A stretch of DNA of 64,000 nucleotides from NCBI GenBank assembly GCA_001606155.1, contig LODT01000034.1, forward strand, positions 535,665-599,664, written 5' to 3'. The position numbers and the translations under genes are program-made. The notes under the pieces are model-generated. The model did no database searches. It saw nothing but the letters and a program-made list of their open reading frames with translations, and was not told the DNA's origin. Within the stretch, counting starts at the first letter, position 1. Every line of letters starts with the position of its first letter. Source of the stretch: Tieghemostelium lacteum. Lineage: Eukaryota > Evosea > Eumycetozoa > Dictyosteliales > Raperosteliaceae. Below are positions 34,182 to 52,658 of this stretch, piece by piece.

Positions 34182-37100
34182 TTAATTTAGATATTTTAGA
34201 ATAATAGTTTCAATAGAGGCACCTGGAGAGAATGCCATCATGATTCCGTGGTTGAATCCAATGGAACCTTCATCGAGTAACATGTAGTTCTTTTCAATGA
34301 TTCTTCGTAGTACATAAAAGGCAGAACATGAAACCATATTTCCATATTTTCTCATGACATCATAGGAATCTGATAGTTCTTCTGATGGTAGTTTCAAACC
34401 TTCTGCAACAGCTTCCAATATACGTCTACCACCTGGATGCACAGCCCAGAAGTCCATGTCTTTCAAAGTCAGATTGTTTCTCTTTAAGAACTCCACTGTT
34501 GCATGCATAATGTTCTCTTCAATTCCTTTACCTAGCTCAGGACGAAGATTTAAATCAATTCCATGGTTTCCAATATACATTGACAATGCATCTTCAGTTC
34601 CAGGCATAAGGTAACTATTGTCATCTACAATCTTGAATTTTCCATGAACTTGACTTTGTGTTTGAGTTGTGACCAAAGCAGCTACACAACCATCTGAGAA
34701 TATACATTGACTTACAATATCTGCACGATTGTTTAGATTAATTTTTAGATTGAGTGAACTTGCCTCTACAGCGACTACAAGAACAAAGGTTCCAGGACGT
34801 GCTTTGGCGTGTACACTAGCAGTTCTCAATGCAATAACAGCTGCACCACAACCCATGAAATTGACCATAGTACGACCACATTCAGTTGGAAGTTTAAGAT
34901 GTTTGATAAGAACGGTGTCAATTGATGGTGCAAAGATTCCAGTACTGGTAACACCTACAACATGTGAAATTAAGTTTCTATCAATACCAGCTCTTTCAAT
35001 AACCTGTTCACCAGCCTTTATGATATAAGATTGAACAAGTTCTTTGAAAATCAAGTTTTTGTCTTTGGTAGTCATGCCAGCTAATTTCTCAATAGAACCA
35101 TCAAATTCATGGAAAAAGTATCTTTCACGAATCTTGGAGTTCTTGTAGACTCTGTCCATGAAATCTTTTTCTTCAGTATGACTTTTCCAAGCTTCACCGA
35201 TATCTGTTTGATATTTATGATGTGGTGCTGCAACTGGACATATTTCATAGACAACAGTGTGTAATTCATTTGGATCTTTGTAAGGTACTTCCAAAGCTTG
35301 TGAGCTTAACAAACTATTCTTTGTACGTAATCTCAAGTGACTTGGGACGAAGCCTCTTGGTGACTCGCTTGGAGATGAATTTGGAGGTGATGTCATCATC
35401 TTGTCACTGAGGTTTGGATCTAGTAAATGCGAGCTTGATGGTGTCAAAGGTGTACCGTAGGTTGAAGTAGATGCTGGTGATGCAAATCTAGTACCGGTAG
35501 GTAATAATGCAGAACTCTTTAGTTGCAATGGAGGTGACTGTTGCATAGATTGAGATGATTGAGTGGTAACAGGAGGAGGTGTAGTAATTCTAACTGCTGG
35601 AATATCAACTGATAATTGAGGTTTAATGATTGGTACCATTTGAGATACAACTGGTTTTTGAATTGTTGGTTTCTTAATGACAGTTTTCTTGATGGTAATA
35701 GGTTCGGATGGCTCCTTGGATTGGATTTGTTGTAGAATGCTATTTACATTGGTTTTCTTATCCAATAGTGAGAATGATGAAATGTAGACTCCAAATTTCT
35801 TTTGAATTGAGTTTGCCAATTCTGAAGACAATAGAGAATCTAAACCATAGTTATACAATGCAGTGGAATTGTGAATGAGTTCAGGTTTCATTTCCAAGAT
35901 ATCAGAGATGATAGATTTAATGCTTTGTTCAACCATTTCCATATTCATGGTTTCCTTAGTGGATTGTAGTTGATTTTCAGTGACTTCAAGAGTATCAGTG
36001 ACATTAGGGATAAAAGTATCCTTTCCACGATACATTGGGAATGAATTTACATAGTTTTGATATGAAATTTCACCATAGACCATTACTTGTTGTCTATGAC
36101 TAAACAATGGTACCATACCATTAATCATAGATTGTAGACTTTCAAATGGATTGAAACCTCTAGATTTCAAAATATTAGAAATCTTAGCATTCTTTGCCAT
36201 GCCAATTTCAGGTACTGGCCCTAGATGAATACAATTTGCAGCTAGGTTTTGTTGTGATCTCATTATTGTCAATCCTTCAACAAATCTATTGGATGCACTG
36301 TAGTTTGATTGTCCTTCATTACCAAGTAATGATGTTACACTTCCAATCACTGTAAAGTAATCAAGATTCATAGTTTGTGTCAATTGGTGAAGGTTTAATG
36401 CAGAACTGCCTTTAGATTGCAATGGTACTGAGAATGATTCAACAGTATGTTTACTTAGGACATTGTCACTTAAAACACCAGCAGTATGGAAAATACCTTT
36501 GATTGTTGGTATTTGAGATTCTTTGATAGACTTGAAAAGAGTTTCAGTTGACTGATAATCAGATAAATCACATTTAAAGACATGTACAATTGTGCCATAT
36601 CTAACTAATTTATCATAAGTTTTCTTTTGTTCTGGAGTTGAGATTCCAGAACGACTTACAACAATCAAATGTTTAAGATTGAATCTCTTGCTGAATTCAA
36701 GTGCCATAGTCTGACCAAGACCACCAAAACCAGTAATCATATAACTATGTTGTTGAGATAGTTGCATTGGAAGATCTATAGTCTTAACTTGGTCAATGTT
36801 AGACCAATTGACGAGAATCTTTCCAATATGTGATCCACTGGACATGTGTCTGATTGCATGTACCATTTCTTGACATTGGAACATTGTATAAGGTAGTGGT
36901 TTAAGTGAACCAATGCAAAGAAGGTCAATAATCTCCATCATCATTTCTCTGAGATCAGATCTCTTATTCTCAGTCATTTGAGCTACATCAACTGCCAAAT
37001 AAGACAAATTATTCTTGAATGGAAGTAAACCGAGTTTAGAGTCACTGTAAATATCCTTTTTACCAATTTCAACAAATCTTCCATATCTAGCTAGACATGA

Positions 37101-40100
37101 CAAACTAGTTTCAATGTACTCTCCAGAAAGTGAGTTTAAGACTACATCAACACCTTTACCTTTAGTTACTTTCATAATGTCGCTGTGGAATTGCAATGAT
37201 CTTGAATCAAAGATGTGACTAGGGTTCAAGTTAAAGTTGTCAATTAGGTACTGTCTCTTCTCTTGGTTACCAACAGTTACATAACAGTCAGCACCAATCC
37301 ATTGAGCAATTTGAAGTGCACTTAGACCTACACCTCCAGCTGCAGAGTGAATTAGGATACGATCAATAGGCTTAAGTCTAGCTTGAACACAGATACTGTA
37401 CCAAGCAGTTAGGAATGTAATTGGAAGTGTACAACAATCTTGTAATGTAAGAATATCAGGGACTTTAAATACCAGGTCAGATTGGCATCTAACTATAGTT
37501 GAAAGGGATCTTGACATTAGAATACCAAAGACTTTGTCACCTGGTTTCAAGTCGCCACAATCTGGACCTACAGCTTGAACGACTCCAGAGAACTCGTCAC
37601 CTATTGTTGAAACTGTTGCACTGTCATAATCTCTACCTAATGATTTTAGAATATCTCTAAAGTTCAAAGAAGAGAATTCAACTCTAACTTCAATTTGTCC
37701 AGTTAAAAGAGTCTCCATTGGTGATTTAACTTCTTTAATTGTTAGATCAGAGATTAAACCTTGGTTACCTAGTTCAACTTGATATTTTCTTTCACATTTT
37801 GGTTGAGTGTAAGATACTTGTGATTGTGTATCTACAATTCCAGAGACCATTGAATATTGGTATTCTTGACCTTTTCTTAAAGCAATTTCCCATTTACCAC
37901 AGTCAAGATTAAACATCTTTTGTAGTACCTGATCAGTGGATAGTTCAGTGAAATCACTGTCAATCATGGTAGTTTCCAATTGTGGGTATTCAGTTGCAAA
38001 TGTTCTAATTTGACCCACAAGTGAGTATTGTGAGAGATTGATTTTATCATCATCAGAGATACATTGAGCGCCAGAAGTTATCAACCACATCTTACCAACA
38101 ATATCATTTGCGATAAATGATTGTACCAATTGGAAGAGTTTTTGATTGGAAACTATGAAATCATCACTATCAAAGAAACTAGGTAAGACAATCATTCTAA
38201 ATTCACTCTTCATTGGCATCTTTTCAAGAACCTTTGTTGAAGATACGATATGAATTCTATCAGAAGAATGACCACTTTCAACAGACATTCTAATGATATT
38301 TTCAATCAACTGATCTTCATTCTTTGTTGGGTTCTCAGTGAATATCAATGTAGTGTGATTGGAAGTCAATTGAATTTGTTCACATGACATGGCATCAATA
38401 CAAGTCCATTTATAGCTACTGGTTAATGAATTTGCATTCTGAGTTGTAGCACTAGATTCTCCAGAAGTAGCAGTTGGAGTAGAAATCAATTTCATTATGA
38501 TATTTGACATTTGACATTGAAGTTGATTATTATGATCGTATACCTTAAGATCAGTGATACACATTGTGGATTTATCTTGTAGTTTCAATGTTGATTTAGT
38601 GTAATACTGATTGTGAATATCAAAAGTACTACTAGTATCATTATACTTGATTTTACTGACAGATTGAGGTACCCATAATCCCTTTGGAATCTCATTGGTG
38701 GCAGATGAAAGTGCAGGTGCAAATGAAACTTGTAAACATGCATCCAATACAGATGGATGAAGTGACTTGTAATCACCAGATTGATGAATGTTCAAACATG
38801 TTGGTAACTGAATCATTGATAGCTGACAATTGTCACTTAGAACTTTACAGTTTCTTACACCTTGGAATGCATCTTTGTAAGTGTATCCAAAGGTACTTAT
38901 AGTCTGGTAGAACTCCTCAGGTTGCATTTCCTTGAGTACCGATAAATCAGTGGTATCCAATACCTGAGTACCTGTATAATCCATTGAACCAGTATGGTAA
39001 TGGATCTTACCTGAACTTATTGGAATCCATTTCTGAGTTGGTACAACTTGGTCCAATTTAGCAATAGAGAACTCGTTGAGATTCTGACTGAATGTCAATG
39101 ACAGTATAGTACCTTTAGTATCTAAAGATACACTAGAGCTAACTTGGAATTCACAAACTTCAAAGTCTCTAGAAGGTGTTTGTACCTGGTCCAAAGCAGC
39201 ATGAACAAGTTCCAAATAGAATGTAAATGGTACTATAGATTGACCTTGAATACTATGATCTTTGAGATAATTGAATCTTTTATGATCTAGACATACTTGG
39301 AATGTTGGAACTTGTGAGAATACTCTCTTATCAAGTGACATATATCTAGGTGGACATAGTCTATCCAATTGCTTTTGAGGTGACTCAATCCAGAATTTCT
39401 GACAAATCCATCTTCTAGATGGGAAATTTCTAAGAACTCTGTGAGTAGAGTTATTATACAACATCTTCCAGTTAATTCCATAACCAATAGAATAAAGATT
39501 TGCCAAAGTTTTCAAAAGTGTGTCTATAGTGGTTTGTTCCTTCTTCATTATAGGATATACAAACATTTGTTGATCTTTATCAGATACTGGATGATCTTTG
39601 ATAATTTGATTGGCAAAGAAACCAACAACAGGATGTGCACTAATCTCCAAAAGACCATCAATTTGGTCCAACTCCTTCTCAACGAGTTGGTCCATAGCAT
39701 CTTTGAAGAGCACTTCATTTCTAATGTTCTTCCACCAGTAATCTGCAGTGGACAATTCCTTTTGACATTGGTCTTCTGACATGAAGCATCCATGTGTTGT
39801 AGAATAGAATTTAATATCACCAGTTGGTCTTCTAGCTTTCATTGAATGGCTATTAAATGACTTGTAGAAATCCTCTTTAATTTGGTCCATCAAAACTGAA
39901 TGGAAACCAGCATTGATTTTTACAGTTCTTTGAGTGATTCCAGCTTGATCAAGTATCTGGATAAAGGCATTCATTGAACGATTGTCACCACTAACACCAA
40001 CCCATTTTCCGGAGTTATTTCCAGAAATTGATAATTTCTCTGAAAATTGGTGTTTTTGAATGATTTCTAACATTTCTTGTTTGGATTTCATTGCAACAAT

Positions 40101-42381
40101 CATTTTACCAGTACCAGTAGTTTGGTTTTGTAAATGACTACGGATATAGAGAATTCTGATACTGTCCTCCAATGTCAAACATCCAGAGACATAAGCAGCA
40201 CAAAGCTCACCTAAACTATGACCAATGACTACTGATGGTTCCAAATCAAGACTTTTTAATAAAGCACAGAGTGAGACTTGTATGGCAAAGATGGATGGTT
40301 GAGCTAACCAAGTATCATTGATAGTCTCACTATTTCCAGTATTTGTAAATAGTTTTTCAATGATTGACCATCCTGAAATTGCTTGGAAAAGACTGGAACA
40401 TCTCATGAACTGGTCACGGAAGATTTGAGATTGTTGGTATAGGTCATAACCCATTTTCATCCATTGTTGACCTTGACCAGAGAACAAGAAACCTAGTTTT
40501 AATTTTGATACTCTATCTTGTCTGTTTAGAATGATATCGACATGGTTGGTATCGTTTAGGAACATATCAAGTTTCTCTTTGAGATCTTCAACTGAATCAG
40601 TGACTATAGATACTCTATTGTCGAGATGATTAGTTCTGACATTACTAGTATAACACAAGTTACTAAATAGTCCATTGTTGTCAGTTGATGATTCAGTTCC
40701 AATGAAATCACGAATATCACTAATTCTCTGTTTGAGATCTTGGATATTGTCACTATTTACTGAGACATTAAATACACCACATTGTGGAACTGGAAATACT
40801 TTATCAGATAAAGTATTAGTGAATTCAGTTATTGGTGATCTAGTTCTAGGTTGATACTGTCTCATCATTGAAGGAGACAAAGAACTGATGACTATATTGG
40901 AATTGGAACCACCAACTCCAAATGAATTCACACATGCAATTCTTGCATCTTCATCAGACTCAGTCATCCATTGTTGATTCTGTCTTGGTACATGTAAATT
41001 CAATTGTTGGAATGGAATATTTTGATTTTCAGTTTCAAACATTACCTGTTTAGGTAACATTTTCTCATTGATACATATGATTGATTTCAAAAGACCACAG
41101 ACTCCAGAGGCACCTTCAAGATGTCCCATTTGACTCTTCACAGATCCAATAACCAAAGGTTGAACTCTCTTACTACCAATAGCATTACCAATGGCAGTCA
41201 ATTCATTTAGATCACCTGCTTGTGTACCAGTACCATGACATTCAAAGTATCCAATTTTATTACAATCAATTTGTGATTCTTCCATTACCTTATTAACTAA
41301 CATCTCTTGTACACTACATCTTGGTGAAGTAATACCACTTGGGGTTTTACCATTCTAAGAATTTTTTAATGAAATATTAGTAAATTTGTGTGAGGTGTGG
41401 TTTAAATGGTTTCATATACATACGGTATTATAACCAGAATTTAAAATTACAGAATAAATATTATCGTTGTCTCTTAGTGCTTGGGATAAAGGTTTGATTA
41501 TTAAAATTCCTGCACCTTCGGATCTGACATAACCATTAGCTTTTTGGTCAAAACTGTGGCATCTTGCATCGGTGTCTTTTGATAGAAGACCAGCTTTACC
41601 ATAGTCCATAGTTTGTAGTGGTGATGATATAATATTAACACCACCAACAATTGCAGAACGACTTTCACCTCTCCAAATAGAGTGACAACCTAAATGGATA
41701 GCAACAAGTGATGATGAACAAGCACTATTAATAGTCAATGATGGACCACAGATATCCAAAACATAGGAAATTCTATTCGAAAGAAATGCTGTATTTTGAC
41801 CAACTACACTGAACTGATTTACATCACTTTGGTCCATACCTCTAGTATAATCTGATGATGAAGATCCAATAAATACACCAACATTATGACCTTTAATTTG
41901 GTCCATTGAAATCTTAGCATCTTCTAAAGCTTCCATTAAAATCTAATCATATCATATATATTAATATATTTAAAAATTCAAATATCAAATTAAAATATAT
42001 ACTGACATGTAATAAAACTCTTTGTTGTGGATCCATTTGTTGAGCTTCTTTGGGTGAAATTCCAAAGAATTGGTTATCAAATAAGTCAATATCATTGAGA
42101 TAACCACCTTTTTTACTTTGGAAAGATTGATCTTTTCTGGAGAGGATGTCAGCATTCCAACGATCACTAGGAATTTCAGTTAGGCAATCGGTACCATTTT
42201 TGATAATTTCTATAAAATCTTGGTATGAATTTACAGAGCCTGGGAATCTACATCCAATACCTACAATGGCAATTGGTTCTCTTTTCATTGGAATTGTAAC
42301 AGGGGCAGTGGTGGTACTCATAGTTGAAGAAGAGGTTTCATTGGATAACATGGTTAATTCTGTTTCTGTATTACTGATCAT
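34182..42381 (-). CDS. stlB: Steely-type hybrid polyketide synthase (type I PKS fused to type III PKS)
   Basis: Exons 42381-42007, 41942-41424 and 41354-34182 give 2,688 aa. Domains in order: KS (active Cys about 200 in NSACSSSLVA; His338 in ECHGTGT; His376 in MGHLEG), AT (GHSLGE, Ser about 675), DH (HSIQGQSIVP, about 995; Asp in HPSVLDA), a KR structural half, ER (SAAGGVGLSA, about 1634), KR (Tyr in GQSNYSASN, about 1981), ACP (GLDSLLSS, about 2136), a Ser/Pro/Thr-rich linker, and a chalcone-synthase-like domain from about 2330 with Cys (FMGCGAAV), His (AVHPGGRR) and Asn (GNMVSCS). All sites look intact. No C-methyltransferase domain fits between DH and ER. In D. discoideum, Steely2 (StlB) makes the acylphloroglucinol core of DIF-1 and Steely1 makes MPBD. 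The neighbouring halogenases and methyltransferase favour StlB; the symbol is an inference from context. Confidence 0.93.
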
Positions 42382-45300
42382 TTTAGAAATAAATAATTAT
42401 TATTGTATTGAAAGGAGGTTTTTTTTTTCAAGTTTGATTGAGATGATGTTTAAATTTGCAAAATGCGTGGGGTGAATAAATGTAAAAAAGTGTATTATTG
42501 AAACTCTGTGTGGTTTATAAAATGAAATTATTAGTGTGAGTGGTTTGTTTTTTAAAAATAGAGTATTTGTATATATTTTTAAAAATAAAAGTTATAATTA
42601 GAATAACTGTGTTATTTGTGATGATATTTATTTAAAAAAATCAAATTTAAAAACACAATGAAATAATAATTTTATAGGAAGGGTTTTATAGGGGTATATA
42701 ATAGTGTTTAAACAACAAAATCAATTAATAATATATTTACAACAACAACAACTAAAGTGATTTTGAAGAATGAACTGAAAAAATTAGGATTGATTTCCCC
42801 TTTTTATACGATCAGAGGTTAATTAATTAAAAAGTTAAAAATTAAAAAAATATTAAAAAATACAATTTTGGAAAATGCAAGTAGAATTGTTTTTTAGAAT
42901 TCAAAGGATAGTTTGGTTGTTTTTTTTGTTTTTCCAATTCGGAAATAAGGCTTTTTTTAAAAAGGATTTTTAAAATTAGTTTAAATTAATAACTTGGAGG
43001 GGGTAGTTTGAAGATATGGGATTGGAAGGGTATCCACCAATAATATCTCTCTCCAAGGTAGTATAATGTGGTTGGGCAGTAGTAAACGAAAAATGTGTAG
43101 AAATAACAACAACAACAACAACAACAACAACAAAAAATTATACTTTTTCTGTGCTTATAAGATATATAATTTTCTATCAACAACGTGTAAAGGAAAATTT
43201 TAAAATTTTGGATATTTACCACCACTATTTACAGCCAAATATGTAAGTGATTTTAAAAATGTTTTTGGAAATTGTTAACAATATCACAACAATAATAATA
43301 ATGGGCAACTTTAATAAATAATTAAATATATATATTTTTTTTTTAAATTGAGTCTCTTACACTTGAATATGTATATGATAATTTAATCTTTTTAAAAGTC
43401 AGATGGTGATATTTAGATTAAAAAGATTTAATGGTGTGGTGTTGGTGAATGTATATTGAAGAGAAAAATGGTCGAAATGTAGATTGAGACAATGAAATGA
43501 TAAACCAACCAAATACTTTTAAAAATAGAAGTATTTTATAAATTTTATGAGTAGTATTTACTAAAACTAGCTATTAATATTTAAAATACAAATGTAATTG
43601 TTGAAAATGCAATTTTGAAAAAAATAATGTAAAAGATAAAGATAAAATTAAATAAATTTAAAATGTTTTTCCTCTTTCTATTTATAAAAGATGCACCAAG
43701 TTCTATCCTTCAACGATTCAAAAGATGATCTGTTATCGTTAAACCTACCACAATGTAAAATTGTACAAAGCTCTTATTAGTGTTTACAGGGTCTGTTTTT
43801 ATATAAATTTTTTGTTGAAAAGAATGTAATGAACTACAAATAAATTCTTATTCGTATGAGTTTAAATATTATTTAAAATGATAATTATAATTTAAATATT
43901 GAGAGAGAGGTTAAATTGTATATAAAGGGTACACAGCTTTTATGAAAATTGTATTTAAAAGGAAATAAAACACACATCAGCTAAACTCCCACTCCAAGGT
44001 GCTGAATTTTCATGATTCTAATTAATTTTAATCATCCTCTCTGAGTTTGTATATATCGAATGCACACTGATCATCGATGTCGTATAAAAAAAAAATGTCG
44101 AAAATATTTTAAATATTAAAATTTAGATGGGCATTTATTTTTTGAAGACCATATTGAATGCTAATTCACCACGCTACCCCACTTCACAACCAATAGGGTG
44201 TTTTATTCATTTTTGTTCTCATCATATTACCATCATCATCATGTTAGATGGGTTATTATTAGAACCGGTATTTCAATTAGAAAGTACAATTTAGGGCTAG
44301 CGTGGGGATTGCAATCAAAAGATTCATCTAATAGGCAGTATGCACATTTTAATTAAACTGATATATAAAGAATGTGTATATGTTATTCAAAAGTGGTGTG
44401 TTAATTGTTTGAATTTTATTTTCAAATAAATATTTTTACATTTTATGCACTATTTGATCATTTTATTGTTGTTGTCACTAATTATATAGACCCCTAATAT
44501 AACTACACACTAATTTCAAAAGAGGATAAATATTATAATTTTTATTTTTAACAAATTTGAGATATCATTTAAACTCCCAATAAACTTTTCAATAGGGAAA
44601 AATCTACTTTTAAAAAGACATCTTCAACTGACAGACATTGAATAGTGTAGTGTAATTCACACACAAATGAATTATGTATTATTATAACTTATCAAAAAAT
44701 TTTATTATATATTAGGTTTATAAAGTTCAAAATGATTAGTTACAATAATTATACTTTATAAAGTTTATATTTAATAAAGGCTATTCTAAAAGAATGTTTA
44801 TGTGGCATATTTAACCAAAGATATTCATTTGTCTTCATTTTTAAAAAAATGTCCTTCTTTAGAGTGTGGTAGTGTGGTAGAAGTGGGTGTTGTAAATTAT
44901 TTGAAAAATATGATGTTGTTTTGTGTAATATGTGACCTGTGAGCTCAAGTTGCCTATCAAATTAACCAAATGCAAACAGTTTCATTTCGATTCAAATAAA
45001 TGAATACCCAAAGGTATTGTTATCTAATACTGGTGTTTTACCCTCTAAAAATGTAATTACTATCAAAAATAGAGTAGTAAAAATCTTTTTCTACCCCATC
45101 TCAATTTAAGAGGTTAAGTTATAAAGGACTTATTTATCATATTTCATTGTAGAGGTTAAAAACAACACAAACCAAAACTGTTAAAAAACATTCTACTGAA
45201 AATAGATATATTTTTAAATTAAGAAAAAAAAAAAAAAAAGAACAAACTTAATTAACTTAATTTACAAATTTTACCGATTGGTATATACTGTATCTGAGGT

Positions 45301-45962
45301 TGAAATTGTTTGGTTAACTTAAAATGTAGTACTATACTATCATCCAATGAAATTGTCTATAGACAAGATTAACTGAGATAGTATTGTGATTTACCAAGAG
45401 GTATCTAAAAAAAATGGTCGATCCATTCTTCAAAATCTCCATTTTTAACTTTTTTAATTAATTTTGATTCGACCAAGCATCAATTGTTGATGGTGTGTTC
45501 AGTCGAACTTTTAAAATAAAATTAAAATTTCTTGAGTATAAAAAGAGGGGGAATTCATATTCATTTTCATTCATTACTATTACTAATACAACAACAAGAA
45601 CATTAAAAAAAAAAACAAAAAAAAAACACACTCCCACTACTTCACACCACTCACCCTTTATTCACATCATTTTACTCTTTATTTTCTATCTATCTATCAT
45701 TTTTTAAATTGTTTTATTTTAAAAGTTAATTCTTGTTGTTTACTATTTATTTTGTTGTTGTTGTTGTTATTTTAATAGATTAATCTATTAAAAAGATCAT
45801 TTCATTTAATACATTTTATTACCATTTCAACATTTTTAAATCTATCATTTTATATTAATATATTTAATTTTTTTTTATATCATATTCGATCATATTCTAT
45901 TTTTATACATATATCAAATATTTACCCAAATTATTTATTATTTATTCATTTAAATTAACAAT
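42382..45962. promoter_or_regulatory. Divergent 3.6-kb region between PKS and halogenase A
   Basis: This unusually long gap separates the divergent PKS and first halogenase genes. It holds both promoters. An (AAC)n tract lies at about 43104-43132. A patch at about 43970-44340 is less AT-rich and contains a perfect 8-bp inverted repeat (CCACGCTA at 44169-44176, TAGCGTGG at 44298-44305). The last ~480 bp before the halogenase ATG is a T-rich leader with short frames judged spurious. No gene or RNA was recognised. Confidence 0.45.
43104..43132. repeat. (AAC)n microsatellite
   Basis: Uninterrupted AAC triplets in the noncoding region upstream of the PKS gene. Confidence 0.85.
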
Positions 45963-47768
45963 ATGGATGTAATTAATGATACTATTTTTTATGATGTTGT
46001 GATTATTGGTGGTGGTATTGCAGGTTTGTCAAGCTGCAGACACCTATTATTAAATATTCCCGATTTATGTAATAAGAGAATTGCAATAATTGAACCAAGA
46101 TCTGCAGAGAGAAATAACCTGAATGAAGACTATAAAGTCGGAGAATCAACAGTAGAGGTCAGTGCAATGTTTTTCAGTAAGGAATTACAGTTGCAAGACT
46201 ACTTGATTGAAAACCATCCTCCAAAGTTCTCTTTACAATTCCATTGGCCAAAGGAAGCTGAGAAGACCGATACAATGGATGACTATTACTCTACATGGGC
46301 TGTAAAGAATCCTGATATTCAAGCATTCCAATTGAACCGTTGTAAAATGGAACGTGATCTTTTAAAGATGGTTATTGATCAAGGTGCTGTCTATTACCAT
46401 GGTCGTGTAAAGGATATTGATTTGACTAAAGGTGACAATGTAAAGACACTTTCAGTACAGATCCTATCAGACACTGAGAATTTCTATGACCAAAAGGTTA
46501 TTGATAATATACTCATTCAAACAGACTATATAGTTGATGCCTCTGGTAGAAACTTTGCAATTGGTTCGAGAACTGATAATGTATTGAAAGATCCTAAACA
46601 TCTCTTTGGTCTACAAAATGCATCGACATGGGTAAGAGTTAAAAATGTCGATAAGAAACTCTTTGATTTCAATAACCCAAATGTCACTGCATCTTGGTAT
46701 TATGCAACCAACCATTTCTTTGGACATGGATACTGGATCTGGATGATCCCCTTGGAAAGAGGTTCACACGATTTCTCCATTGGTGTCTCTTATCATCGTG
46801 ATAAAATCGATCCATCCCAACTCAACTCTTATGAAAAGTTTATGAATTTCCTAGAGAAAAATCAAAAGATTCTCTACAATCTCATTAGTAGTGGTGAACT
46901 TGTAGATTTCCATCGTTGGCCTAAACTTGCACATACAAGTAAAGTATTCTTTTCCGAAGATAATTGGGCTGTTCTAGGAGATGCCGCTGCTATATTTGAC
47001 CCATTTTACAGTACTGGTATGATTATGATTGCTTTTGAAGTTGAGTGTCTAACTGAGCTTATCAAAATGCGTCTTCAAAAGAATTGGAATTCCTATAGTC
47101 TCAAAAGAAAAACATTTGATAAACTCATTCGAGCAGTCACACAAATCAATAACCATTTAATCAAAGACCACAGTAACCATCTAGGAAACGCTTCAGTAAT
47201 GTCATGGAGAATCTACATTGAATCGAGTAACTACTTTGGTATTCTACTACCTGCTTACATTGGAAAGTACCATCTATGTCCTGAATTTTCTGAAAAGTTT
47301 TTACAAGGTCACGAGAAAAACCTTCAGGTTAGAAACGACATTCTCCGTGTCTTTGATGATATAATTGAACGTGGTTTGAATATAGGCTTTATGGATAACC
47401 ATCGTGGTGGTCAATTACTAGGTGACTGGTCTCCCACAAGTTCATGGGACTATGACAAGTGTCTTTCATTATGTAAATACGAACATAAACGACTTAACCT
47501 TCCACTGTGTCTTGCCTGGACATCATTCTATCAATCCTTGTCATTCCTAAAGATATTCATGACTGCCTACGGCTACAAATCCGTTTTAAATCCACTATTT
47601 CACTCGACTGTTAGTCACAGTCTATGGAATTTCTCAAAATTCTATATGGTCTCTTGGGTACATTGGTACAAGAATCGCTCTCGACCTGTTAACGCCTACT
47701 ATCAAGATATCAATGATAATTTTAAATCCTATAAAGCTTCTAATGCTCTTGTACCATGGAAATATTAA
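45963..47768 (+). CDS. chlA: Flavin-dependent halogenase A (ChlA-like)
   Basis: Intronless, 601 aa. It is an FADH2-dependent halogenase that would chlorinate an activated phenolic ring. The FAD Rossmann motif is DVVIIGGGIAGLSS (11-24). The likely catalytic Lys is Lys58 in DYKVGEST, the position of the hypohalous-acid Lys in the family. The halogenase signature WxWxIP is WIWMIP (258-263). The second flavin motif is GDAAAIFDPFYSTG (about 340). The C-terminal ~200 residues form the helical part. ChlA in D. discoideum dichlorinates the StlB product on the way to DIF-1. The position next to a Steely PKS and an O-methyltransferase supports the same role. A separate flavin reductase would be needed; none is in this window. 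Confidence 0.93.
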   Translation: MDVINDTIFYDVVIIGGGIAGLSSCRHLLLNIPDLCNKRIAIIEPRSAERNNLNEDYKVGESTVEVSAMFFSKELQLQDYLIENHPPKFSLQFHWPKEAEKTDTMDDYYSTWAVKNPDIQAFQLNRCKMERDLLKMVIDQGAVYYHGRVKDIDLTKGDNVKTLSVQILSDTENFYDQKVIDNILIQTDYIVDASGRNFAIGSRTDNVLKDPKHLFGLQNASTWVRVKNVDKKLFDFNNPNVTASWYYATNHFFGHGYWIWMIPLERGSHDFSIGVSYHRDKIDPSQLNSYEKFMNFLEKNQKILYNLISSGELVDFHRWPKLAHTSKVFFSEDNWAVLGDAAAIFDPFYSTGMIMIAFEVECLTELIKMRLQKNWNSYSLKRKTFDKLIRAVTQINNHLIKDHSNHLGNASVMSWRIYIESSNYFGILLPAYIGKYHLCPEFSEKFLQGHEKNLQVRNDILRVFDDIIERGLNIGFMDNHRGGQLLGDWSPTSSWDYDKCLSLCKYEHKRLNLPLCLAWTSFYQSLSFLKIFMTAYGYKSVLNPLFHSTVSHSLWNFSKFYMVSWVHWYKNRSRPVNAYYQDINDNFKSYKASNALVPWKY

Positions 47769-48482
47769 TTGTTGTTAAATCTCAAATTGAAAATAAACAC
47801 AATATGTAACACCTCCTCTGCTATACCTATAATATAAATATACACCCCACAAAATAAATTTAGTATTAGTAATAATTTTCTTTTACACTTAAATTTTTAC
47901 ATCTATCTATTAAAATTATAACCTTCTATAACAACAACCAGCGCAAAACTAAAATCAGAAGATACCAGTTTCGAAAGATAGTAGACTTAAACCTTCAGGT
48001 CATTTGTTGAAGCAATGGTTTATGTTGAAAAGTTAATACATATTATAATACTAATGTATTATTCTATAACATCAGAAGTACATCTTCATAGAACCAACCT
48101 CTTAATTAATGTGTTAATCATTTTTATAAATGTTGTGTGTATTTTAAACCCATTAAAATAAGAGTACATTTTTTATCTTTTTAAGAAATGTATGAGTCTA
48201 GTCAAACTACAATTACAATTCGGGTAGGATCTATTATGTTAATTAATCATAAGTTTTCTAGATATTGATCACATTGCGCTATGTTTATATCTGACAAAAA
48301 AATTGAAAATATCTGTACAATAAATTTGTAAAACTACTACTTCAACAAATTTATTTATAAAAATGTGCTGTGTTAAAGTTAATTTTAAATTACATAAAGG
48401 ATAATTTAAATAATAGAGACAAAGGAAAAAGTTAAATAATTATATAAAAAAAAATAAAATAATTTTAATAAGAAAGTGAACT
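47769..48482. other. Intergenic region between the two halogenases
   Basis: About 700 bp of AT-rich sequence with no open frame. It probably contains the end of the halogenase A transcript and the promoter of halogenase B. Nothing else was recognised. Confidence 0.5.
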
Positions 48483-50295
48483 ATGATTCCTTTGAATAAA
48501 AAATTTTAAATATGATATTGTTGTCATTGGTGGTGGTATTGCGGGTTTGTCATGTTGTAGACATTTGCTATTAACTATTCCAGAATTGAAAAATCAAAGA
48601 ATTGCCTTGATTGAACCTCGTACCTTGTCTAGAAATAATGTGCGTGAAGATTTCAAAGTCGGTGAAAGTACAATTGAAATTAGTGCAATGTTTCTCACTA
48701 AGGAACTACAGTTACAAGACTACATGATTGAAAATCATCCACCTAAATTTGCATTACAGTTCCATTGGCCTAAAAAAATTGAAAAGACTGAGACTATGGA
48801 TGACTATTACTCTACATGGTCAACTCAGAATCCTGATATACAGGCATTTCAAATAAACCGATCTAAACTAGAAAGGGATATGACTAAAATGGTTATTGAC
48901 CAAGGTGTTAAATACTATCATGGTCGTGTAAAAGATATTGATATCAATAGTAGTGGTGGTGCTCATAGTGTAGATATTCAAATTCTCTCTAATGAAGAGA
49001 ACTTTGAAGACCATTTTGAAATTGATAGAGTCACTATACAAGCTGAATATATAGTAGATGCCTCTGGTAGAAACTTTGCAATTGGTTCGAGAACTGATAA
49101 TTTATTGAAAGATCCTAAAGACCTTTATGGTCTACAAAATGCATCGACATGGGTAAGGGTTAAAAATGTCGATAAGAAACTATTTGATTTCAATAACCCA
49201 AATGTCACTGCATCATGGTATTATGCAACCAACCATTTCTTTGGACCTGGGTATTGGATCTGGATGATACCCTTGGAAAGAGGGTCACATGACTTCTCCA
49301 TTGGTATCTCTTATCATCGTGATAAAATTGAATGTAACCAATTGAACACCCAAGAGAAATTTATGAAATTTTTAGAGAAAAACCAAAAACTAGTCTACAA
49401 TCTCATTAGTAGTGGTGAGATTGTAGATTTCCATCGTTGGCCTAAAATTGCACATACAAGTCGAGTATTCTACTCACATGATAACTGGGCAGTCATTGGA
49501 GATGCCGCTGCTATATTTGACCCATTTTACAGTACTGGGATTAGTATGATGGCAATAGAAATTGAGTGTCTAACTGAACTTTTGAAATATAAACTAAACA
49601 AGGATACCAATGGCTATAATCTTCGTTTGAAATTATTCAATGGACTGATTACATCTCTAACCAAGATATTTTGTCATCTCATTAAAAAACATAGTGATCA
49701 TTTGGGTAATGCTTCGGTGATGTCTTGGAGAATATACATTGAATCTAGTAGCTACTTTGGAATTGATATTCCATCTTATATTGGAAAATACCACCTATGT
49801 CCTGATTTTATTAAAATATTTCTGGATGCACATCCCTCTATACTAGCAGTTCGAGATACGATGTTAGAGACACTTGATGATATCAATAACCGTGGTTTGA
49901 ATATTGGGTTTATGGATAATCATCGAGGTGGTCAATTAAAGATTGTTAATTGGTCACCAATAACCAGTTGGGATTCTGATGAATGTCTGGCTCTTTGTAA
50001 ATATGATAGACAGAGGCTTAATCTTCCTTACTGTCTACAAAGAATTACAACTTATCAGTTGATTGCATACACTATGCTTTACATTAAAGCATATGGATGG
50101 AGAGCTATGTTCAATAATAACTACCTTTTCATTGCCAGAAATCTTCTATCACAAATACCAAAATACTACATAGGCTCTTGGATTCACTATTTTAAGAATT
50201 TCTCAAAACCTAATAACGACTACTTTGAAAGCGTTAAGAATGAATTTGAACAACAATACAGTTATTCAGTTAAGAATCAACATGTACCATTTTAA
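48483..50295 (+). CDS. Flavin-dependent halogenase B, tandem paralogue with apparent N-terminal frameshift
   Basis: It is closely related to halogenase A along its length and keeps the catalytic Lys (DFKVGEST), WIWMIP and GDAAAIFDPFYSTG. From the FAD motif (YDIVVIGGGIAG) to the stop at 50295 the frame is open. However, no in-frame ATG precedes the FAD motif; a TGA lies at 48493-48495. The only suitable ATG (48483) reads MIPLNKKF and then a stop, one base out of frame with the rest; the shift falls in the A/T run at about 48498-48510. No AG acceptor exists between the TGA and the FAD motif, so an intron does not explain it. Either this is a homopolymer sequence error, or a very recent inactivating change. 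The intact, conserved remainder favours a gene that is or was recently functional. Confidence 0.85.
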
Positions 50296-50978
50296 TATCC
50301 ACATTTTTTAAATTTTTGCTCTCATCATCACTACCACATTTCAACTGAAAATGAAAAATTAAAAATAACAAAGAACTTATCATTTTTAAAATAACTTGTT
50401 TTTGATTTTTTTAAATTTTTTGTTTAATTATTCAATCTCCCATCCAGATGATCAAGCTGTAAAAATCTCTTAGAGGGGGGGTATGAATATCGGGTGCTGA
50501 TGTTGACCCACTTACAAATAAAAATTAAACAAGAAAAAAAAAAAAAAAAAAACAACAACACTTGTGTACATGTCAGAATTTATTTATATATGATAAAAAA
50601 CAAATACATATACTAAAGTGTGTTTGTGTTGTTGTTTTTTTTTTTTATTAAAAAATTTGATGATTATTATATCAATTTTTAAAACATCAACATTAAGAAG
50701 AGCAACCAATACATTATCAAAAAGCAAAAATAGATTTGTAAATCTAAAAACATATGTTTCAACATTTTTAAAAATAGAATCATATAATTTTTTTTTATAT
50801 AAATAGAATATTAAAGAAATTTAATTTCTTCATCAACATAAAAACAGTAGAATAGTTCACTCTAAAAAAAGAAAAAAGCTAAAAAAAAACACTCTAAAAA
50901 AAGTGAAAACAAAGTTAGTTTTTATAATATTTTAGCTTTAAAACTATTTATTCAAAATACAGTCCCACTGATCAAAGA
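50296..50978. other. Intergenic region upstream of the O-methyltransferase
   Basis: About 680 bp with long A and T runs. A short frame at 50618-50806 begins in a T-rich tract and is judged spurious. The region presumably carries the methyltransferase promoter. Confidence 0.5.
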
Positions 50979-52658
50979 ATGGAATCCATATTTTCATCAC
51001 TATTGGCATCGTCATTGTTGGTTGGACTTCCAAGTGTAATCTTTGTATTTGTAATTGTTTATATATCATTTGGAATGTTCAAAAAGAAATTTTCACACAA
51101 GGAATCATTTCCACCAATTGTGGGGATATATATAACCAAATGTCTATATTCCATTACATACTATTGGGAAAAAATAGTACCTCAACTGAAGTTTCTCAGA
51201 GTGACACATGACTTTATAGTATTTCAATGTTTATCAGTGGTTTTTACTTTAAAAATTATTGATCATCTCAATGATGGTCCAAAGAATGTCAATGAATTGG
51301 CAAAGTTGACAAACAGTTCAGAAAAGAATTTGTTTCGTGTCATGAGAGCTTTGACACACGAAGGTTTCTTTTACTATAATGAAGAAACTAATAAGTTTGC
51401 CAATAATAATGTTTCAAAACTACTTGATAGCACTCCAATGCAGAGACTATCAGATCAAGATAATAACAGTAGCCGGAGTGGTAGTAACTGTAGTAGTCGT
51501 TCCTCATCACCAATTTCATTAAATAGTGGCTATAATAAGAATTTAAAATTTAAAAATAATTATAATATAAATAGTGGTAATGGTGTTACTAATAGTGGTA
51601 GTTGTGGTGTGGGTGCTAATAATGTGAATAATGTTGGAAGTGGTGGTAGTGTGAGTTTTGTCTCATCAGTTGCATCTGCAAATTCTAATATAAACACATT
51701 TAGTACAAAGAAAATGTCACCAATATCCTCATTGAATAACAGGAGTAATTTAACAACATTTATGGAAAGTAAAGATTCATTCTATTTGGATGGTTTCAAT
51801 GGTGATTTTCATGACGACGATGATTTTGATGATGTCAGAGAAGAGAATATAAGCTGTCTACTTTCGATGTTACAGTACCCAGCATTTATAGAATCATGGC
51901 AAAAACTAAGAGAATGCGTTCAATCTAGTGTACCAGGTTTCCAGATTAAACATGGTGCCTCATTTTTTCAATATATAGACGAAAAGGACAGTTATCTAAA
52001 GAAGATTTTTGACTGTTCAATGAAACAAAAGAACCAATTACTAAAAACCAATCAACAGATATCCACACTCTTCAATTTCAATGACTATCCAGTTATTTGT
52101 GATATTGGTGGAGGTGTTGGATTTTTAGGTTTTGAAATTCTAAAAAAACACCCCAAATGTTCTGTCATTGTTTTAGAGTTGGATGAAACTGTAAAGAATG
52201 GTGTGGAATTGTCAAATTTTGACAAAACAAAAAGACATTTTATCGAATCTGAACGTATACAGTTTAAACCTGGTGATATGTTTCAACCAAGTTCTATTCC
52301 ACGTGCTAATCTCTATGTACTTATGCAAGTTGTACACGATTGGAATAATTCAGATGCCATTAGAATACTCTCAAGTATCAGTTGTGTTATGAGAAAACAA
52401 GCTCAATTCTCAGGCCAAAATGAACAGAAACCCAGATTAATCATCATTGATGCCATTGTTGATGAACAAGTTGGAAATACTGATTTTTCAAGTAAATCAG
52501 TTTTAATCTCTGATATCATTATGATGGCAATCGTAGGTGGCGAAGAACGTTCAAAAAAACAATGGGATTTTCTATTTCAAGAGTCAAATTTAATTCTTTT
52601 AAACACATTTAAATTTAGTTATCCCCCCTTTTTATCAATAATGGAGTTGTCAATTTAA
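50979..52658 (+). CDS. dmtA: SAM-dependent O-methyltransferase (DmtA-like), membrane-anchored
   Basis: Intronless, 559 aa. It has the plant-type caffeate O-methyltransferase fold: an N-terminal dimerisation/winged-helix part (VNELAKLTNSSEKNLFRVMRAL) and a SAM-binding domain with motif I VICDIGGGVGFLG (about 370) and the catalytic His in MQVVHDWNN (about 450). RSKKQWDFLFQES matches the family C-terminal block. Two additions stand out. Residues ~10-33 form a hydrophobic anchor (LVGLPSVIFVFVIVYISF). About 130 Ser/Asn/Gly-rich residues (roughly 155-285) plus an acidic patch interrupt the protein between its two domains. DmtA catalyses the last step of DIF-1 synthesis, methylating desmethyl-DIF-1; cluster context supports this role but the substrate is inferred. 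Confidence 0.85.
   Translation: MESIFSSLLASSLLVGLPSVIFVFVIVYISFGMFKKKFSHKESFPPIVGIYITKCLYSITYYWEKIVPQLKFLRVTHDFIVFQCLSVVFTLKIIDHLNDGPKNVNELAKLTNSSEKNLFRVMRALTHEGFFYYNEETNKFANNNVSKLLDSTPMQRLSDQDNNSSRSGSNCSSRSSSPISLNSGYNKNLKFKNNYNINSGNGVTNSGSCGVGANNVNNVGSGGSVSFVSSVASANSNINTFSTKKMSPISSLNNRSNLTTFMESKDSFYLDGFNGDFHDDDDFDDVREENISCLLSMLQYPAFIESWQKLRECVQSSVPGFQIKHGASFFQYIDEKDSYLKKIFDCSMKQKNQLLKTNQQISTLFNFNDYPVICDIGGGVGFLGFEILKKHPKCSVIVLELDETVKNGVELSNFDKTKRHFIESERIQFKPGDMFQPSSIPRANLYVLMQVVHDWNNSDAIRILSSISCVMRKQAQFSGQNEQKPRLIIIDAIVDEQVGNTDFSSKSVLISDIIMMAIVGGEERSKKQWDFLFQESNLILLNTFKFSYPPFLSIMELSI

What the first reader, a model, noticed from the sequence alone, without database searches (positions are those of the whole stretch)
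34182..52658. Clustered DIF-like pathway: Steely PKS, two halogenases and an O-methyltransferase
Seen: four adjacent genes encode a type I/type III hybrid PKS, two flavin-dependent halogenases and a caffeate-type O-methyltransferase, with no unrelated gene between them. Known: StlB, ChlA and DmtA carry out the assembly, chlorination and methylation steps of DIF-1 synthesis in D. discoideum. Inference: this species makes a chlorinated alkylphenone from a physical gene cluster. My recollection is that the D. discoideum genes are not all linked; if so, linkage here would show cluster formation or retention of an ancestral cluster. Two halogenases suggest different chlorination patterns or more than one product.
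Basis: partly seen in the sequence, partly recalled or inferred. Interest (0 to 1): 0.85.

Follow-up and report, generated by a model that had tools for sequence, protein, structure and literature searches.

The report
Clustered DIF pathway genes, social amoeba
In one social amoeba, genes resembling those that make a known chlorinated developmental signal and antibacterial compounds sit side by side in the genome, together with an extra chlorinating-enzyme copy whose reading frame is broken in this assembly.

Summary
The window lies in the Tieghemostelium lacteum genome (species inferred). It carries a Steely PKS (42381-34182, minus strand, three exons, 2688 aa), two ChlA-type halogenases and a DmtA-type O-methyltransferase, with no other credible gene seen between them. 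PKS and halogenase 1 are StlB and ChlA orthologues by tree and by published D. discoideum primers; the DmtA name rests on orthology alone. PMC9489281 already reports that D. discoideum stlB and chlA are adjacent and share a promoter; only dmtA is elsewhere. Locus tags suggest the same adjacency in P. violaceum and two EukProt species, one with a dmtA-like gene beside them, so an ancestral, eroding cluster is the better reading. Not found in print: dmtA linked in T. lacteum and at least four halogenases there, which form one clade. Halogenase 2 is a recent copy (95% nucleotide identity) of an intact gene on another contig; its FAD-motif frame has no in-frame ATG, a true break or an error of this 454-sequenced genome. 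"Two halogenases, two products" is thus unsupported for the window pair. Expression and products were not testable.

The parts
42007..42381 (-). stlB orthologue, exon 1 (start codon, KS beginning)
   Evidence: GT..AG splice sites and similarity by eye to P0122
41424..41942 (-). stlB orthologue, exon 2 (KS, active Cys in ACSSS)
34182..41354 (-). stlB orthologue, exon 3 (rest of KS, AT, DH, ER, KR, ACP, C-terminal type III PKS with Cys-His-Asn motifs)
   Evidence: Pfam; motifs; tree
42382..45962 (.). 3.58-kb divergent intergenic region between stlB and chlA; its position matches the shared promoter region reported in D. discoideum
   Evidence: PMC9489281 passages
45963..47768 (+). halogenase 1, ChlA orthologue (601 aa; GGGIAGL, YKVGES, WIWMIP)
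48496..50295 (+). halogenase 2, open frame stop to stop (599 codons); no ATG in this frame before 48688, the ATG at 48483 is in another frame
48287..50421 (+). block shared at 91.6% with G000:C26:270062-272190 (recent single-gene duplication)
   Evidence: blastn
50979..52658 (+). DmtA-type O-methyltransferase (559 aa; hydrophobic N-terminal stretch, Dimerisation and Methyltransf_2 domains, catalytic-type His in HDW, a long Ser/Asn-rich insertion)

Best explanation
This is the T. lacteum DIF/chlorinated-polyketide locus: a retained ancestral dictyostelid cluster stlB-chlA-dmtA with an extra halogenase copy. Expected steps, by orthology: the type I half of the PKS builds a short acyl chain on its ACP; the fused type III domain extends and cyclises it to an acylphloroglucinol (THPH in D. 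discoideum); halogenase 1, working with reduced flavin, chlorinates the ring; the OMT methylates a ring hydroxyl. stlB and chlA are read divergently from one intergenic region, so they can be switched together. Halogenase 2 arose within the T. lacteum lineage's halogenase expansion and is either newly broken or mis-sequenced; its intact near-twin lies on contig C26. Shown here: gene content, orthology, linkage, motifs, copy number. Inferred: enzyme activities, product, co-regulation, ancestral linkage.
For: Domain architecture complete, with the active-site motifs searched for found in the spliced model. PKS tree: window PKS sister to P. violaceum + group 4 StlB, 98/99. P0124, used as D. discoideum StlB, begins MNNKSVNDL against MNNNKSINDL from the published StlB primer, and P0004 (D. 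firmibasis) closely matches the published ChlA start and matches the AGLSATR primer. With the same 389-residue type III query, Steely1 (StlA, PDB 2h84) scores 116.6 bits and P0124 423 bits. From the node of the four T. lacteum halogenases, halogenase 1 has the shortest path (0.14; halogenase 2 about 0.54, C30 about 0.66) and it keeps the place beside stlB. Linkage elsewhere from the hit tables: P. violaceum CYY_002059/CYY_002060 on one 72.8-kb contig; EukProt gene1479/gene1480 with OMT gene1477; EukProt gene6790/gene6791; H. album PPL_00287 and its PKS on one 1,995,969-bp contig; A. subglobosum StlB copy _107370 and OMT _107490 on one 482,440-bp contig. The OMT keeps the His that aligns with HDW of MmcR and CalO6.
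Against: C. fasciculata has chlA and its PKS on different contigs; the best OMTs of P. violaceum and H. album lie on other contigs, and gene9754, if from the gene6790 species, is far off in number, so dmtA linkage could be secondary. A. subglobosum ChlA came with no contig, so its place is unknown. The DmtA name was not tied to a published sequence (searches gave none). The group 3 species D. vinaceo-fuscum is reported not to make DIF-1 although it makes chlorinated compounds (PMC7259674, PMC5113120). No expression or chemistry data for these genes were seen. EukProt gene numbers are assumed, not shown, to follow genome order.
Confidence: 0.75

Rival explanations
1. The locus mainly serves late antibacterial chlorinated compounds (dibenzofuran CDF type) rather than DIF-1; the OMT makes methoxy variants.
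For: In D. discoideum StlB and ChlA also make CDF-1 in stalk cells (PMC9489281 passages). Related compounds Pf1 and Pf2 of P. filamentosum differ by chain length and a methoxy substitution, and late chlorinated compounds are reported across dictyostelids (PMC12767764 passages). A group 3 species is reported not to make DIF-1.
Against: In D. discoideum dmtA is not essential for the late compounds and is expressed in a different region of the fruiting body. No T. lacteum chemistry was seen.
Confidence: 0.4
2. The dmtA linkage is secondary: the ancestor had only stlB-chlA and dmtA moved in independently in T. lacteum and in the gene1477-1480 species.
For: D. discoideum has dmtA away from the pair; the best P. 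violaceum and H. album OMTs lie on other contigs than their chlA and PKS.
Against: Two separate arrivals next to the same pair, plus a same-contig link in A. subglobosum, cost more steps than one ancestral cluster with losses. The PKS tree puts the window on one side and gene1480 and A. subglobosum on the other (unrooted).
Confidence: 0.25
3. Halogenase 2 is a functional second enzyme and its broken start is only a sequencing error.
For: The genome was sequenced with 454 at 29-fold (PMC4931340 passages), a method prone to homopolymer miscounts (recalled), and the frame change sits in an A/T run. 599 codons without a stop; dN/dS to the C26 twin about 0.36.
Against: As assembled, no ATG is in frame before the FAD motif, and the database protein P0010 starts at 48688. 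The open frame is weak evidence: of neutral simulations with 28, 43 and 86 changes, 29%, 15% and 3% showed no stop. Of the 47 protein differences between the twins, 21 fall on halogenase 2, 14 on C26 and 12 are undecided; halogenase 2 departs from 32 and C26 from 28 of 286 near-invariant columns.
Confidence: 0.5
4. Halogenase 2 is a young pseudogene or a truncated, inactive protein.
For: Assembly as it stands: no in-frame ATG before the FAD and catalytic-Lys motifs. An intact twin exists on C26.
Against: Single lesion, no internal stops, and no gaps after the start in the protein alignment to the twin.
Confidence: 0.45

Closest known systems
DIF-1 pathway of D. discoideum (StlB, ChlA, DmtA)
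   Same: Orthologous PKS and halogenase 1, likely orthologous OMT; stlB and chlA adjacent with a shared promoter region (passages, for D. discoideum)
   Different: In D. [quoted passage not shown] T. lacteum has a dmtA-like gene in the block and at least four ChlA-type genes
P. violaceum stlB-chlA pair (CYY_002060, CYY_002059)
   Same: Consecutive locus tags on one contig
   Different: Best OMT orthologue CYY_005045 on another contig
EukProt species with gene1477, gene1479, gene1480
   Same: OMT, ChlA and StlB orthologues with nearly consecutive gene numbers
   Different: One gene number (1478) unaccounted for; species not named by the tool; order inferred from numbering only
Cyanobacterial flavin halogenases
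   Same: Among the listed non-dictyostelid hits those with a named organism are cyanobacterial; listed identities 40-46% (120 of 3243 hits listed); chlA already judged a lateral transfer from prokaryotes (PMC4931340 passages)
   Different: Dictyostelid sequences form one clade apart from the six used as outgroup

Membership tests
StlB (Steely2) | Type I PKS fused to a C-terminal type III PKS | tested here: met
   Pfam domains in order; spliced model
StlB (Steely2) | Orthology to D. discoideum StlB rather than StlA | tested here: met
   Tree; primer match of P0124; PDB Steely1 more distant
StlB (Steely2) | Makes THPH | not testable with these tools
   Needs enzyme assay
ChlA, halogenase 1 | Flavin halogenase motifs GxGxxG, KVGES Lys, WxWxIP (roles recalled) | tested here: met
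ChlA, halogenase 1 | Orthology and position beside stlB | tested here: met
ChlA, halogenase 2 | Start codon in frame with the FAD motif | tested here: not met
   so it is filed as a ChlA-derived copy, not as a working ChlA
DmtA | Orthology to the D. discoideum protein named DmtA | tested here: inconclusive
   One D. discoideum protein group returned at 53% (P0135, candidates capped); its identity with the published dmtA was not tied to a sequence
DmtA | O-methyltransferase domains with catalytic-type His | tested here: met
Biosynthetic gene cluster | Co-located pathway genes | tested here: met
Biosynthetic gene cluster | Co-expression | not testable with these tools
   T. lacteum RNA-seq counts are said to be in Supplementary Data 6 of PMC4931340; supplements could not be opened here

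The most novel reading that the evidence does not exclude
The last common ancestor of dictyostelids carried a three-gene stlB-chlA-dmtA cluster. It has been dismantled gene by gene: dmtA left first, and in A. subglobosum, H. album and the gene9754 species its enzyme also lost the catalytic-type His, which would explain why A. subglobosum DmtA does not work in D. discoideum. T. lacteum kept the cluster and multiplied the halogenase into four genes, so that it makes chlorinated polyketides beyond DIF-1.
Probability: 0.35. Interest if true: 0.65.

Novelty: new variant of a known kind. Interest (0 to 1): 0.5.

Why it matters
The DIF pathway is a model morphogen pathway whose enzymes are conserved across dictyostelids while its product apparently is not. 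A locus in which all three steps are linked gives a natural test of whether they were once co-regulated, and the halogenase expansion points to untested chlorinated products in group 3. The missing His in three OMT orthologues makes a concrete prediction about which species can do the last step.

Tried and rejected
Rejected: 'the PKS is StlA'. 'Halogenase 2 starts at 48688' as a working enzyme: the FAD motif would be missing. 'Halogenase 2 is a simple recent tandem copy of halogenase 1': it is 66.7% identical to halogenase 1 but 92.2% to the C26 gene. An intron at the start of halogenase 2 was considered by eye only and is not excluded. A structure prediction to compare halogenase pockets was not run, because from the tool's description no coordinates would have come back for mapping.

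Literature: 9 of 10 searches used. No title, abstract start or passage that I saw in them reports dmtA linkage or more than one T. lacteum halogenase; most listed papers I saw only as listings, and subscription papers and supplements were not searchable. PMC7259674 was read in parts 1 to 4 of 5; PMC3188802, PMC5113120, PMC4058090, PMC9489281, PMC2726288, PMC12767764, PMC4931340, PMC5386361 and PMC4334915 as passages. PMC7259674 speaks of a 'single chlorinating enzyme ChlA' conserved as orthologues; one search finds four ChlA-type genes in this genome. How that paper chose the T. lacteum orthologue was not visible.

The halogenase tree used 13 dictyostelid rows and 6 of the 108 listed non-dictyostelid hits; P0010 was replaced by the longer open frame and P0009 by the same gene read from C30. 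The PKS tree used a rough join of exon pieces made before the splice sites were fixed; a few residues at the joints differ. It is rooted at the midpoint, for drawing only. The OMT tree used 11 dictyostelid-type and 5 other rows and has 4 open forks among 13 inner branches. Sorting the EukProt numbers into two species rests on the ratio of the two numbers in each name (about 1.25-1.26 for gene822, 1477, 1479, 1480; about 1.16-1.17 for gene6790, 6791, 9754), worked out by hand, my inference.

Full report
What is there. The window belongs to a genome of 23,333,832 bases in 43 contigs. Its contig (884,058 bp) and another (1,536,112 bp) match the contig lengths listed for the window's own halogenase and for the T. 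lacteum protein DLAC_08131, so I take it to be Tieghemostelium (Dictyostelium) lacteum, the group 3 dictyostelid published at 23.4 Mb in 54 gap-free contigs, assembled with fosmid maps (PMC4931340 passages). That makes the linkage itself trustworthy.

The four genes. The PKS runs from 42381 to 34182 on the minus strand in three exons, 2688 aa, with KS, AT, DH, ER, KR, ACP and a C-terminal type III PKS, and the active-site motifs I searched for in the spliced model were found. Halogenase 1 (45963-47768) and halogenase 2 follow on the plus strand, then an O-methyltransferase (50979-52658). No other credible gene was seen between them: no ORF of 150 aa or more in the gaps, small ORFs listed only for the largest gap, no tRNA and no Rfam match.

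Orthology. In an 11-sequence tree the PKS is sister to P. violaceum plus group 4 sequences with 98/99 support. The D. discoideum sequence in that tree is StlB and not StlA: its first residues closely match the StlB primer printed in PMC9489281. Halogenase 1 is 71% identical to the D. purpureum and 68% to the P. violaceum orthologue. The OMT finds one orthologue group in group 4, 49-54% identical over about half of the query. I call it DmtA-type; the name was not tied to a published dmtA sequence.

Linkage in other species. PMC9489281 states that in D. [quoted passage not shown] The hit tables add P. violaceum (consecutive tags), two EukProt species (gene1479/1480 and gene6790/6791), H. album (same contig) and, for the OMT, gene1477 in the first EukProt species and a same-contig link in A. 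subglobosum, whose ChlA came with no contig. Against: C. fasciculata has the pair on different contigs, and the best OMTs of P. violaceum and H. album are on other contigs. D. purpureum contigs are too short to tell. D. firmibasis has chlA and the OMT on one 4.94-Mb contig, 56 tags apart. One ancestral cluster with losses explains this best, but gene order was read from tags and contig lengths, not from DNA.

Halogenases. The genome holds at least four ChlA-type genes: two here, one on C26 and one on C30. They form one clade with 100/99 support, so they multiplied in the T. lacteum lineage after its split from the other sampled species. From their common node halogenase 1 has the shortest path; the others are three to five times longer. 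Halogenase 2 and the C26 gene are recent twins: 92.2% protein and 95.2% nucleotide identity, dS 0.10, dN 0.037, within a shared block of about 2.1 kb. The C26 gene is intact. In halogenase 2 the frame that encodes the FAD motif has no in-frame ATG, and the upstream ATG is in another frame. The genome was read by 454, so an error is possible. The absence of stops is weak evidence of use: 15% of neutral simulations with 43 changes, half of the 86 differences, also show none.

The methyltransferase. The window OMT, both P. violaceum copies, gene1477 and the three group 4 sequences in the alignment keep the His that aligns with the HDW motif of solved O-methyltransferases. Gene9754, A. subglobosum and H. 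album have Asn, Gly and Ser there. PMC4058090 found A. subglobosum dmtA unable to rescue D. discoideum, yet says the three catalytic residues are conserved (passages). Either P0140 is not their gene or the residues were assigned otherwise; I could not tell.

How it likely works. By orthology the PKS makes an acylphloroglucinol, halogenase 1 chlorinates it and the OMT methylates it, with stlB and chlA driven from one divergent region. All of this is inference from D. discoideum; the group 3 species D. vinaceo-fuscum is reported not to make DIF-1, so the product may differ.

Verdict. Real and correctly spotted, but the pair stlB-chlA is known to be linked. New here, as far as nine literature searches of an open-licence library show, are the linked dmtA-type gene and the halogenase family of at least four.

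Noticed in passing
L012-L018, L037 (G000 contigs C23, C2, C33, C34, C9): Seven single-frame type III PKS-like genes in open frames of 372-392 aa, plus a partial eighth hit on C9. Only the window StlB is seen fused in one frame; a fusion across introns is not excluded. One on C23 is closest to the Steely1 (StlA) type III domain in the PDB; no type I PKS was recognised by eye in the 40 kb read around it, while a KS-like ORF lies beside the C2 pair (L017). T. lacteum may lack a fused StlA.
   Followed up: partly
alignment A1, P0139, P0140, P0141: DmtA-type orthologues of gene9754, A. subglobosum and H. album lack the catalytic-type His kept in the window OMT and in group 4.
   Followed up: partly
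G000:C26:272193-272912 and G000:C30:890081-890830: Both dispersed halogenases have an ORF beside them that looks by eye like a HAD-type hydrolase; not scanned against Pfam, may be chance.
   Followed up: no
G000:C30:887946-889298: ORF near the C30 halogenase that looks by eye like a piggyBac-type transposase.
   Followed up: no
P0012 (EukProt gene822): A second, long-branched halogenase perhaps from the same species as gene1479 (sister in the tree at 80/75), hinting at an independent halogenase duplication.
   Followed up: partly
P0125, P0126: Two A. subglobosum Steely PKSs found with the StlB query are each other's closest relatives in an 11-row tree without StlA, although PMC4334915 (passages) speaks of stlB and stlA homologues there.
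   Followed up: no
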